Assembly: GCA_020849275.1 (NCBI GenBank)
Contig: JADLGO010000012.1
Coordinates: forward strand, 1 to 63,956
DNA from: Chthonomonadales bacterium
GTDB lineage: Bacteria; Armatimonadota; Chthonomonadetes; Chthonomonadales; CAJBBX01
Length of the DNA: 63,956 bases
Direction of reading: 5' to 3'
The position numbers were made by a program, and so were the translations under genes. The notes under the pieces are model-generated. The model had not been told where the DNA came from and ran no database searches. It was given only the letters and a program-made list of their open reading frames with translations. Positions 31,652 through 39,775 of this stretch are shown piece after piece (positions within the stretch are counted from its first letter, which is position 1; the number at the start of each line of letters is the position of its first letter).

Positions 31652-31675
31652 CCTACCTGCCTGCCGGCAGGTAGG
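31652..31675. repeat. Palindromic element P1
   Basis: CCTACCTGCC (31652-31661) and GGCAGGTAGG (31666-31675) form a perfect 10-bp stem with a TGCC loop. It is the best copy of a small palindrome family found in the gaps of 31.6-33.1 kb. Confidence 0.8.
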
Positions 31676-35622: not shown

Positions 35623-36972
35623 CTACCGCGCTGGCGCCGCGGTCACGTGCAGCGCCCAGTCGCGCGCGTCGGGCGTGCGCAGCGGAGTGGGCTCGTCGCC
35701 GGCATTCACCAAGGAGGAGGCCGCGAAGCGCCCCGAGCGCGGGTCCCACCAGGCCGCGCGATAGCGCCGGCCCGCCAGGAGTCGCAGCGCCACGTCCCCG
35801 CCGCGCGGGAAGTAGGCGACGTACTCCTCGCCGGGCCGTGCCATGCAGTAGCCGCCCCCGGAGGCGACCAGCGAGCGGTCCGGCGCAGAGCGCACGAACC
35901 GCCACCGCGACTCGCGCAGGAACCGCGCGATGCCCCGCACCACGTCGAGCGGCCGGGCCGAGGCCGCCGCGTCCTCGATATGGAAGTTGCCGCCGCTCGT
36001 CAGGATCGTCCAGCACATCCCGCGCAGCAGGTCGTTGCTCCGCACGCCGTTGGCGAACTCGTCCACATTGATCGCTTTGCCGAGGCGCCAGCGCGGCTCA
36101 AGGTAGGCGTTGAGCGCGTCCGGATCGCGCTCTGCCTCGCCGCCGAAGTGCCGGTTCACCACGTCGACCTCCGGGACCGCGTAGAACGCCTCCAGGTCGG
36201 GCCCGATACTGCTGTAGGAGACCAGACGCGGCTCGCGGCGATCCCTCGCGGCCAGGACGGCCTTGACGAAGCGCGCGTAGTGGCGGCCGAACTCCGGGCT
36301 GGCGTCGCCGATGTGCTCGTTCTCCACCTCGTAGATCACGTTCGGCAGCGAGGCCGTCTCCGCGACCATCTTGCGGACGTAGCGCTCTTGCTGGCGCCGC
36401 AAGCGCGGCCGGCTGGCAAACTGGTAGAACTCGGGAACGCCGTCGGCGGAGGAGGGCGGCGTCTCCAGGCCGTTCGAGTTGTTGTCGCTGGCCCACGGGT
36501 TGGCCGCCCAGCGTCGATCGCCGCCGGGCGACATGCCGCAGCGGTCGAAGAGGAGGATCTCGGCGTAGACGCCCGCCGCGTCCGCCGCCGCCACGGTGCG
36601 CCGCATCCGCGCCCAGTAGTCGGGGTCCCAGCGCTCCATGTCGAAGCGGTTGCCCCCGTGCCCGCCCATGTAGGCGCCGGGCACGTCGCCCCGCTGCCAC
36701 GGCCAGACCGCGAGGTTACCCTCCCACGGCAGGAAGTGCCAGACGCGCGCGTAGCGGGCGCCGTGCGCTTGCATCGCTCGCAACTCCGCCTCGTTATTGA
36801 ACCCCTTGGCCGTGGGCACCAGGTTACCGTAGCTGGCGATCACGACGGCCGCGCCGGTGCGCGTCTCGAGAAAGTAGCGGGGGTTGTCGGGGTGAAGGCG
36901 CAGGTAAGCGCCCGCCGGCCTGGCCATGCAGAGGCCGGCGAACGGCAGCGTCGCAAGCAGTCGGTAGAGCAT
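35623..36972 (-). CDS. GH5/GH140-like TIM-barrel hydrolase with C-terminal beta-domain
   Basis: The 449-residue protein has a leader (LLATLPFAGLCMARPAGA) and a clan-A-like barrel: AMQAHGARYARVWHFLPWEG, YWARMRRTVAAADAAGVYAEILLFDR, SLPNVIYEVENEHIG with the acid/base-type Asn-Glu, and KAINVDEFANG with a second Glu. The C-terminal 90 residues (YVAYFPRGGDVALRLLAGRRYRAAWWDPRSG) match the beta-sandwich (putative collagen-binding) that ends DUF4038/GH140-like proteins. GGAGAGA precedes the ATG. Apiosidase or related activity on pectin side chains is possible but unproven. Confidence 0.75.
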   Translation of the reverse strand: MLYRLLATLPFAGLCMARPAGAYLRLHPDNPRYFLETRTGAAVVIASYGNLVPTAKGFNNEAELRAMQAHGARYARVWHFLPWEGNLAVWPWQRGDVPGAYMGGHGGNRFDMERWDPDYWARMRRTVAAADAAGVYAEILLFDRCGMSPGGDRRWAANPWASDNNSNGLETPPSSADGVPEFYQFASRPRLRRQQERYVRKMVAETASLPNVIYEVENEHIGDASPEFGRHYARFVKAVLAARDRREPRLVSYSSIGPDLEAFYAVPEVDVVNRHFGGEAERDPDALNAYLEPRWRLGKAINVDEFANGVRSNDLLRGMCWTILTSGGNFHIEDAAASARPLDVVRGIARFLRESRWRFVRSAPDRSLVASGGGYCMARPGEEYVAYFPRGGDVALRLLAGRRYRAAWWDPRSGRFAASSLVNAGDEPTPLRTPDARDWALHVTAAPAR

Positions 36973-37011
36973 CGTCTCTCCGTCGTCGGGGGTCAGGGAC
37001 CGCCCGGCGGG

Positions 37012-37320
37012 TCAGTCGTCGGCCGGCTCAGGACCGGCTGGCGGCGCCTGCGCGGGCACCGCCGACAGGCCGCGCGTTCGCCAGAGGTCGAGCAGGAGCG
37101 GTCCGAGCCCGGCGAACCGGTAGCCGGGATCCACGTAGCGACCGATGACCTAGAACGCGAAGTAGCAGAACCGCGCGAAGCTCCACACGGCGATGGCCAC
37201 GGGGAGGGCCGTGCGGAGGGTGGGGCTCTGCAGGAGGAGCCCGGCCGAGGCCAACGCCCCGGCCAGCACGAACAGGAACCCCTTCACGCAGATGAGCCGC
37301 GGATCGGTGATGTCTCCCAT
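37012..37320 (-). pseudogene. Small membrane protein gene interrupted by an in-frame amber codon
   Basis: Reading from the ATG at 37320, codons 1-56 encode one hydrophobic helix (GFLFVLAGALASAGLLL) and a second start (VAIAVWSFARFCYFAF). Codon 57 is TAG (37150-37152). The same frame then continues for 45 codons to TGA (37012-37014) with sensible protein (VIGRYVDPGYRFAGLGPLLLDLW). I recall small planctomycete/armatimonad membrane proteins with a YYFAFYVIxRYVDPGYRF signature, which would put Tyr at the stop position. A single TAC/TAT to TAG change explains it. Alternatives are a sequencing error or suppression. It lies between the secretin-like and GH5-like genes. Confidence 0.6.
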
Positions 37321-37419
37321 GGCGAGTGCCCCCGGCCGCGGCCGATCGAGCCGGCCGCGCGCCCTGCTCCTCGCGCGTGGCCGGCCCTACTCCTCCGCGG
37401 CGCGCCGAGGCGCATCCCG

Positions 37420-39636
37420 CTATGCCTTCCAGCCGCTGCTGTAGCGCACCAGGTCCTCGATGGTCGGGATGACCACCGGCTCCAGTATGATGACGCTGCT
37501 CTGATAGACACCCTTCTGTCGTTTGCTCACCTTGAAAGGGGCGAAGGGGATGTCCGCCAGCAGGTCCTTCACGCCCGGCACCTTGCGCAGCACCGGGATG
37601 CCGCCGGTGTTCTCGAAGTAGCTAACGTTGCTGGTGAGGGTCGAGAGCACCGCGGGCTCGTAGGAGAGGACGCTGATCGTGGCGTTGTCGATGCTGTGGT
37701 TGGTTACGCGGTCGGTCACCTTGTCCGAGTCTGGCTGCAGCGTCTGGGCGGCGGTCAGCGTCAGGGTCACCGAGCTGTCGTCGATGCCGATGCTGGGCCT
37801 GGCCGAAAGGCTGATGCCGGCCTGCACCGGCGCGGCCTGCCCGCCGGCCATCAGCGCCTTGACGATCGCCTCGCCGGAGAAGCCGTACGCCTTCGAGAGC
37901 TTGCTCAGGGCGTCCTGCGCCTGGCTGGCCTGCCGCACGCGCTCCAGCAAGCTCGACTGGGACGGCAGCTTTGCCTGCACCTCCGCCGACACCGTGTTCG
38001 TGGTGTCCGCCGCGAACTGCAGGCTGACGCTGTTGGAGACGAAGAGGTTAACTCCCGTGTCGGCCAGCAGCAGGTCGCGCGCCACGTCGGGCACATCCTC
38101 AATCTCCGACTGTGCCAGGATCTCGCGGCTGGAACTTCTTGCGAGCTGCTTGTTGGCCAGCAGGCGCAGCTCCTCAACATAGCGGTTGTAGAACTGATGC
38201 TCCAGCGCGCGCTGCATCGCGTCGCTGGCGCGCCGCAGCCACAGGTTCAGCGCGGCCTCCAGCGCCTCCAGCCTGGCGTAGTTGATGTCCTCCGAGGCGG
38301 CGGGGTCCCTCGCCTCGAGGCGGCCGTCCAGCCGGTTGCGCTGCTCCGCGTACTGGCGAAACATGCTCACGAGCTGCTCGAGCGTCGGCGCCGCGCTGTC
38401 GCTGGCGGCCGCCACCGACTCGAAGAGCGCCAGCGGCACCGAGATCAGGCTGTCGGCGATCGCTTTGAGCGCCAGGAGCTGGCGCCCGGCGAACCCGGGC
38501 CGGTACCTCCGCTGCTTCTCCTCCCTCTGTCGGTCGGTGGTCGCTGGCTTCAGGTAGCCCCCGATGTCTCGTTCCACCTCCTCGGCGCGCTCCAGCGCCG
38601 TGCCGAAGCGGCGCTGAAGCTCCCGGAGGCTCGCCACCGTCTGGCGCTGGCCGAGCGCGGGGTACAGCCGGCGCGTCAACTCCAGCGATCGGCGCAGGCG
38701 CACGCCCACCCAGGTGGGCAGCGGGCAGTCGTCGCGCTGGAGCGCCTGCTCGAAGCCCGCGATGCCGAGGCCCTCGCGCTCGGAGAGTTGCTCGGCGTAG
38801 TGGGCGCACCAGTCGCGCGCGTGGGCCACCGCCTGCTTCCAGTCGGCCAACCGGGGGCCGATGGAGCGGGCCGTCGCGTCGTCGTCCGACCGGGGGTCCT
38901 GCACGGCAGCCCCGATGGCACGCGTGAGGGCCTCCAGGGCGTCCTCGGCCTGGGCGCCGGCCGCCGTCTCGCCTGGCCCGGGCGCCAGGTCCGGGAGCGC
39001 GCGATCGATCATCAGCAGGAGCAGGATCTCGGGCACGGTCAGCGGTCGCTCGCCCTTGCCGAGCGTCGGCAGGAGCTTGCGCACCTCCGTGTAGATCGCC
39101 AGGTCCTTGCCGGCGCGCCGGCTCAGGCGGCCAAGTAGGTAGCTCTGCAGGTCCGCGAAGGCGCGCACGACCTGGGCGCGCTGCGTGTCCACCAGGGCGC
39201 GCACCGTGTCGGTCATCTGAATCACGTCGGTGTTGGCAGGGCCGGTGAGCTGGACCACGCGCAGGTTGAGTTGCAGATGGGCGCGCGGGCGCTCGAACAG
39301 GAAGGCCATCATGCGGATGTTCTCGATCTCCGAGTCCACCCAGGCGCGGTCGCCGGCCACGAGGACGTAGTTGCCCGTCGCCACGAACGAGAGACGCGCG
39401 TAGCGGGGCTGCTTCGGGTCGCCTGGGAGCCGCTGCCGGAAGAGGCCCTGGCTCTGCAGCCGCTCCAGCTGAGCCTGGAACTCCTGGGCGGAGAGGGAGT
39501 CCTTCATCACCACGCGCCGCACCGCGGCGGCGCCGGGCACCGGGTCGGGCGCGGACGCTTGCGCAGGGGCGCAGGCGAACGCCATCGAGCAAGCGGCGAT
39601 CAGGGCGGTGACGAGGTTCCTCCGTTTCGGGGTCAT
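37420..39636 (-). CDS. Secretin-like outer-membrane protein with large helical insertion
   Basis: The 738-residue protein has a signal peptide (LVTALIAACSMAFACAPAQASA). Residues about 75-135 resemble a secretin N-domain (YVLVAGDRAWVDSEIENIR, RAHLQLNLRVVQLTG). The end resembles the secretin C-terminal beta-domain: LSARPSIGIDDSSVTLTL, ISVLSYEPAVLSTLTSNV, GGIPVLRKVPGVKDLLADIPF and SSVIILEPVVIP. Between them about 350 residues are helical and Arg/Leu-rich, which is not normal for GspD or PilQ. The ATG at 39636 has AAGGAG 9 bases upstream. No other secretion or pilus assembly genes are adjacent. The assignment rests on the two end regions. Confidence 0.6.
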   Translation of the reverse strand: MTPKRRNLVTALIAACSMAFACAPAQASAPDPVPGAAAVRRVVMKDSLSAQEFQAQLERLQSQGLFRQRLPGDPKQPRYARLSFVATGNYVLVAGDRAWVDSEIENIRMMAFLFERPRAHLQLNLRVVQLTGPANTDVIQMTDTVRALVDTQRAQVVRAFADLQSYLLGRLSRRAGKDLAIYTEVRKLLPTLGKGERPLTVPEILLLLMIDRALPDLAPGPGETAAGAQAEDALEALTRAIGAAVQDPRSDDDATARSIGPRLADWKQAVAHARDWCAHYAEQLSEREGLGIAGFEQALQRDDCPLPTWVGVRLRRSLELTRRLYPALGQRQTVASLRELQRRFGTALERAEEVERDIGGYLKPATTDRQREEKQRRYRPGFAGRQLLALKAIADSLISVPLALFESVAAASDSAAPTLEQLVSMFRQYAEQRNRLDGRLEARDPAASEDINYARLEALEAALNLWLRRASDAMQRALEHQFYNRYVEELRLLANKQLARSSSREILAQSEIEDVPDVARDLLLADTGVNLFVSNSVSLQFAADTTNTVSAEVQAKLPSQSSLLERVRQASQAQDALSKLSKAYGFSGEAIVKALMAGGQAAPVQAGISLSARPSIGIDDSSVTLTLTAAQTLQPDSDKVTDRVTNHSIDNATISVLSYEPAVLSTLTSNVSYFENTGGIPVLRKVPGVKDLLADIPFAPFKVSKRQKGVYQSSVIILEPVVIPTIEDLVRYSSGWKA

Positions 39637-39775
39637 GCGTCGGCTCCTTACGGTGCGGGGTCCGGGCAGCTCGAGAGAGGAGCGTGCAAGGCATCCGTAG
39701 TACGCACACAAGACGGTCGACGGGGAGGTTTCGTTCCGGTCGCGCAGCGAGCGGACGCGGCCCTGGCGCCGCGCG

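What the first reader, a model, noticed from the sequence alone, without database searches (positions are those of the whole stretch)
37012..37320. In-frame amber codon inside an otherwise intact small membrane protein
The frame continues for 45 sensible codons after TAG 37150-37152, with a VIGRYVDPGYRFAGLG block. From memory, relatives have Tyr at the stop position, so one base change accounts for it. It may be a fresh pseudogene, a sequencing error, or read-through by a suppressor tRNA.
Basis: partly seen in the sequence, partly recalled or inferred. Interest (0 to 1): 0.6.

Follow-up and report, generated by a model that had tools for sequence, protein, structure and literature searches.

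The report
Decayed copy of small membrane protein
A bacterium of the phylum Armatimonadota carries a copy of an undescribed small membrane protein gene that is cut short by a stop codon and shows other damage, so it is most likely an ordinary, fairly young dead gene.

Summary
Relatives run through this point: column 57 is Tyr in 101 of 102 other aligned members and Cys in one. TAG is an ordinary stop in this genome (Armatimonadota): 104 of 293 sampled gene ends; RF1 is present; none of the 44 tRNAs found has anticodon CTA; no PylS over its cut-off. Of five sampled gene ends where coding signal ran on past the stop, four separate different protein families and one is unresolved. Besides the stop, the gene has residues seen in none of the 102 others at three conserved columns (P40, C52, G60), and its part after the stop fits the family second worst of 103 rows, while the part before ranks only 25th worst. 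This favours a young pseudogene. An error at this one base cannot be excluded without reads; read-through has no support here. Another member (L146) also combines an amber codon with broken conserved columns. Interest is low; the undescribed parent family is the more useful by-product.

The parts
37150..37320 (-). Intact first part of the gene, 56 codons from ATG, then TAG; would give a 56-residue truncated product
   Evidence: coding LLR 19.1, 0.34 per codon
37150..37152 (-). In-frame TAG at codon 57, at a column that is Tyr in 101 of 102 other rows and Cys in one
37078..37149 (-). Remnant of the family's C-terminal part (codons 58-81)
   Evidence: aligns with the family; coding LLR 5.5 for 24 codons; lowest but one in family fit of 103 rows
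37012..37077 (-). Further open frame beyond the usual family end, up to TGA 37014-37012; little coding signal
37420..39711 (-). Upstream neighbour in the same direction, 99 bases away: 763-aa protein with a sub-threshold match to the Secretin domain
   Evidence: 17.2 bits against a cut-off of 27.5
35623..36972 (-). Downstream neighbour in the same direction, 39 bases away: 449-aa protein, Collagen_bind_2 domain over its cut-off, weak glycosidase-type matches

Best explanation
It is a young pseudogene of a small membrane protein family (about 80-85 residues, two long helices and a short C-terminal helix in the model of a relative). Shown: a nonsense codon lies in the second predicted helix, before the most conserved stretch YVIE(H/K)YVD, and three other conserved columns carry residues not seen in relatives. 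Inferred: translation stops at the TAG by RF1, a 56-residue piece without the conserved C-terminal part is made or degraded, selection on the gene has ceased, and the frame after the stop is still open only because the loss is recent.
For: Relatives continue through the stop with Tyr in 101 of 102 rows. Residues found in none of the 102 others: P40 (others L 97, M 3, F 1, Y 1), C52 (Y 101, D 1), G60 (E 90, Q 10, T 1, S 1). In the 27-row set (leave-one-out, columns at least 85% conserved in the script) the window row has 4 such departures counting the stop; the other 26 rows have 0 to 2. The part after the stop has the second lowest family fit of 103 rows (1.74 bits per column), the whole row the sixth lowest. 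RF1 over its cut-off; TAG ends 104 of 293 sampled genes; no CTA tRNA among 44. The gene is sporadic: 28 of 291 genomes held of the phylum, own genome counted, and 1 of 12 of its family, the own one, so it seems dispensable. L146 shows the same combination, TAG at column 46 with Y52D and Y57C.
Against: The signs of decay are moderate. With columns at least 97% conserved the window row has 2 departures, the stop included, and is tied with three other rows, of which L135 has no stop. The part before the stop ranks only 25th worst of 103, and a row without any stop (L023) has more badly fitting columns (9 against 6). No relative close enough for a dN/dS test was found: nearest identity 0.67. Coding signal persists after the stop.
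Confidence: 0.72

Rival explanations
1. Sequencing, assembly or strain-mixture error at one base; the gene is really intact.
For: One base separates TAG from either Tyr codon (genetic code). The genome is in 73 contigs, and other members in fragmented genomes also show lone ambers (L014, L022). The frame stays open after the stop and its codon usage is gene-like for 24 codons.
Against: It does not explain P40, C52 and G60, residues absent from 102 relatives, or the poor fit of the tail, unless several errors cluster here.
Confidence: 0.15
2. Read-through of the TAG by a suppressor tRNA, by pyrrolysine insertion, or by leaky termination, giving a full-length protein at some level.
For: The frame after the stop is open for 45 codons and still recognisable. 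In-frame stops under purifying selection are reported to be widespread in bacterial genes (PMC7918605, abstract and outline seen).
Against: None of 44 tRNAs has a CTA anticodon, though tRNA-Ile(GAT) was not seen either, so the tRNA set of the assembly is incomplete. PylS_Cterm matches of 30.1 and 26.8 bits against a cut-off of 178, as weak matches also ring in 13 of 14 control genomes. RF1 present. TAG ends 104 of 293 sampled genes, and of five continuing frames four are pairs of different families, one undecided. The tail fits the family second worst of 103. The stop is not conserved: 0 of 102 others have it at this column.
Confidence: 0.06
3. The 56-residue product is itself functional: both membrane helices are largely kept and the C-terminal part was shed.
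For: Predicted helices of the intact relative are 7-29 and 35-63, so most of both would remain; the part before the stop keeps a normal family fit (25th lowest of 103) and strong coding signal.
Against: It loses the invariant columns V58, Y62 and D64 (102 of 102), and the kept part has P40 inside helix 2 and C52 at a column otherwise Y or, once, D. No member that ends near codon 56 was seen among the 103 rows; members cut so short would however score low in these searches.
Confidence: 0.06

Closest known systems
Undescribed family of small membrane proteins in Planctomycetota, Verrucomicrobiota, Armatimonadota and a few others (aligned here as A1; L003-L028, L085-L164)
   Same: Same length up to about codon 82 and same conserved K13, R50, Y53, F56, V58, Y62, D64; nearest identity 0.67
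   Different: Stop at column 57 where 101 of 102 have Tyr; P40, C52, G60
Nonsense pseudogenes of prokaryotes (Liu et al. 2004, PMC522871; abstract and outline seen)
   Same: Single in-frame stop in a sporadically distributed gene, with further damage
   Different: Nothing in kind; the copy here is younger than many (frame still open)
Bacterial genes with in-frame stops kept under purifying selection (Belinky et al. 2021, PMC7918605; abstract and outline seen)
   Same: In-frame stop followed by a recognisable frame
   Different: Here the stop is not shared by any relative at this column and the part after it fits the family badly; dN/dS could not be tested

Membership tests
Small membrane protein family A1 | Columns invariant or nearly so: K13, R50, Y52, Y53, F56, Y57, V58, Y62, D64 | tested here: inconclusive
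   Seven of these nine kept; Y52 is C and Y57 is TAG in the window. Descent from the family is clear (E 3.6e-30 or better against the two best relatives); an intact member it is not.
Pseudogene | Disabling mutation inside the conserved part, relatives intact | tested here: met
   TAG at codon 57; 99 of 102 other rows have no stop inside the domain
Pseudogene | Relaxed selection | tested here: inconclusive
   Three unseen residues and tail fit second worst of 103, but head 25th worst and whole row 6th worst; no dN/dS possible
Pyrrolysine or suppressor read-through gene | tRNA with CTA anticodon in the genome | tested here: not met
   0 of 44 tRNAs; the assembly lacks some tRNAs
Pyrrolysine or suppressor read-through gene | Pyrrolysyl-tRNA synthetase | tested here: not met
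   best 30.1 bits, cut-off 178.15
Reassigned TAG (alternative genetic code) | TAG rare or absent as terminal stop, RF1 lost | tested here: not met
   104 of 293 gene ends; RF1 496 bits, cut-off 423
Sequencing error | Reads disagree with the consensus | not testable with these tools
   no reads available

The most novel reading that the evidence does not exclude
Loss by nonsense mutation recurs in this family: 4 of 103 aligned members carry an in-frame stop within the domain, all four TAG, at four different columns (13, 46, 57, 72), and one more member (G101) lacks most of helix 2. The boldest reading is that the family is under a conditional or phase-like switch in which amber alleles keep a leaky, low level of the protein.
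Probability: 0.03. Interest if true: 0.5.

Novelty: new member of a known kind. Interest (0 to 1): 0.13.

Why it matters
As a dead gene it matters little, beyond warning that gene callers will report a 56-residue protein here. The parent family is of some use: short, strongly conserved (12 invariant columns among 23 members), spread over several phyla, and without a match over a Pfam or NCBIfam cut-off in the alignments scanned, so it is a clear target for functional work. If read-through were shown, it would be a case of amber tolerance in a phylum where my paper searches brought up no such report.

Tried and rejected
First protein-based scan of genome contigs with the window protein gave 596 pattern matches but no relative; the scan with the alignment worked. 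Pfam, NCBIfam and PDB sequence searches gave no usable family: scattered matches, best Pfam E 0.0039 and best NCBIfam E 0.011, each to one or two of 23 members; no PDB match up to E 1. Foldseek against the PDB gave 12 matches, the best at E 3.1, none at E 0.001. A synteny test with the upstream secretin-like gene failed because it has no match in the other 11 family genomes. Neighbour clustering over 80 named loci plus the window found no shared partner: the two largest clusters (41 and 17 loci) overlap the gene in other frames and I take them as artefacts; the recurrent real neighbours look like LpxB (8 loci), a dihydrouridine synthase (7) and a DUF1501-like protein (9), names recalled from the sequences, not tested. 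TAG reassignment in the genus of G041 and G132, whose copies also hold ambers, was considered: TAG ends 7 of 56 and 12 of 43 sampled genes there and RF1 is present in both, so rejected. That all four in-frame stops are TAG was considered as a sign of suppression and rejected as too few, since for AAG-type and TTG-type codons TAG is the only or nearest stop. Paper searches: 2 of 3 terms, 2,274 papers, 10 listed, none on this subject by title; 0 papers; 20 papers, 10 listed.

Full report
What is there. On the minus strand an ATG at 37320-37318 opens a frame of 56 codons that meets TAG at 37152-37150 and would go on for 45 codons to TGA 37014-37012. It lies 99 bases after a 763-aa gene (37420-39711, sub-threshold Secretin match) and 39 bases before a 449-aa gene (35623-36972, Collagen_bind_2), both on the same strand. 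The window is contig C12 of a 4.80-Mb genome in 73 contigs, completeness 99.92%. Its phylum is Armatimonadota: the best relatives G112 and G046, listed as of the same phylum, are at the same contig positions as records titled Armatimonadetes bacterium (L085, L086).

Relatives. 28 of 291 genomes held of the phylum have a match, the own one counted; of 12 in the same family only the own genome does. An alignment of 23 of the 27 full-length rows (window, L014, L022 and the short L024 left out) brought in named relatives: 488 candidate stretches, 338 confirmed, the best 80 kept, mainly Planctomycetota, Verrucomicrobiota and Armatimonadota, with single Myxococcus, Parabeggiatoa, Elusimicrobia and others. 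Joined, after dropping three rows that are the same genes as L015, L003 and L004 and one identical row (L115), and without the two fragments of G101, there are 103 rows. Column 57 is Tyr in 101 of the 102 other rows and Cys in one, L146. The family usually ends at about residue 82-90.

Is TAG read as sense here? In 438,098 bases of this genome (window plus 20 stretches) I called 307 genes by codon usage; 293 ends fall inside the stretches: TGA 177, TAG 104, TAA 12. TAG is thus a regular stop. RF1 scores 496 bits, over its cut-off. RF00005 finds 44 tRNAs; I read the anticodon of all 44 with ARAGORN and none is CTA. No tRNA-Ile(GAT) was among them, so the tRNA set of the assembly is incomplete. 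PylS gives only weak sub-cut-off matches, as in 13 of 14 control genomes. At 5 of 293 gene ends (TAG 4 of 104, TGA 1 of 177) coding signal runs on through the next 30 codons; four of the pairs belong to different Pfam families (such as EF-Ts followed by an amino acid kinase), hence separate neighbouring genes, and one pair has no Pfam match and is undecided. This method sees genes of 80 codons or more only.

Is the gene decayed? Apart from the stop, the window row has P40, C52 and G60; in the 102 others column 40 is L 97, M 3, F 1, Y 1; column 52 is Y 101, D 1; column 60 is E 90, Q 10, T 1, S 1. In the smaller 27-row set the window row departs at 4 conserved columns counting the stop, the other 26 at 0 to 2. 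A leave-one-out profile, built without the four stop-bearing rows, puts the window row sixth lowest of 103 overall, 25th lowest before the stop and second lowest after it. Against this: at columns conserved to 97% or more the window ties with three other rows at 2 departures, and one stop-free row (L023) has more ill-fitting columns (9 against 6). The evidence for relaxed selection is therefore moderate, and strongest after the stop. Coding signal is still gene-like for the 24 codons after the stop, so the loss would be recent.

What the protein was. The model of the intact relative L015 (23 sequences, mean pLDDT 87, pTM 0.71) has helices 7-29, 35-63 and 72-81. By its sequence I take the first two as membrane helices (inference). 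The TAG falls near the end of helix 2 and removes the conserved stretch after it. No known fold or family was found, and no constant neighbour.

Other broken members. In the 103 rows, four have a stop inside the domain, all TAG: the window (57), L146 (46; also Y52D and Y57C), L014 of G041 (13) and L022 of G132 (72). G101 lacks most of helix 2 and L159 runs into unrelated sequence after column 67. In G041 and G132 TAG is an ordinary stop (7 of 56, 12 of 43 sampled ends) and RF1 is present. The gene thus seems lost now and then in different lineages, which fits a dispensable function. The 80 named rows were the best of 338 by score, so broken members are probably under-counted.

Verdict. Young pseudogene, 0.72; error at the one base, 0.15; functional truncated product, 0.06; read-through, 0.06. 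Nonsense pseudogenes are common in prokaryotes (PMC522871, abstract and outline seen), and stops kept under purifying selection are also reported (PMC7918605, abstract and outline seen); the second would need sister genomes to test here.

Noticed in passing
L003-L028 and L085-L164 (family A1): A strongly conserved membrane protein family of about 85 residues, sporadic in several phyla (338 confirmed stretches of 488 candidates), without a match over a Pfam or NCBIfam cut-off listed for it; function unknown.
   Followed up: partly
L146:3001-3246: Planctomycetota member with TAG at column 46 and unseen residues at columns 52 and 57: an independent decayed copy.
   Followed up: partly
L014:1501-1779 and L022:1501-1743: Two members from one Armatimonadota genus with a TAG at column 13 and column 72, otherwise in good shape; could be errors or very fresh losses.
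   Followed up: partly
L029/L030 (G101:C27:58188-58394): A member with an apparent in-frame deletion of most of helix 2.
   Followed up: no
31657-31670: Half of a palindromic repeat: the 14-base pattern CTGCCGGCAGGCAG occurs 7 times in the genome (4 places, in three of them on both strands, offset by 4 bases) and the backwards control 0 times.
   Followed up: partly
37420-39711: 763-aa gene with a sub-threshold Secretin match and no match in the other 11 genomes held of its family.
   Followed up: partly
35647-39138 (+): A 1163-aa open frame on the opposite strand covers this region; taken as a shadow of GC-rich genes on the minus strand, since the plus-strand frames score below the coding frame.
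   Followed up: partly
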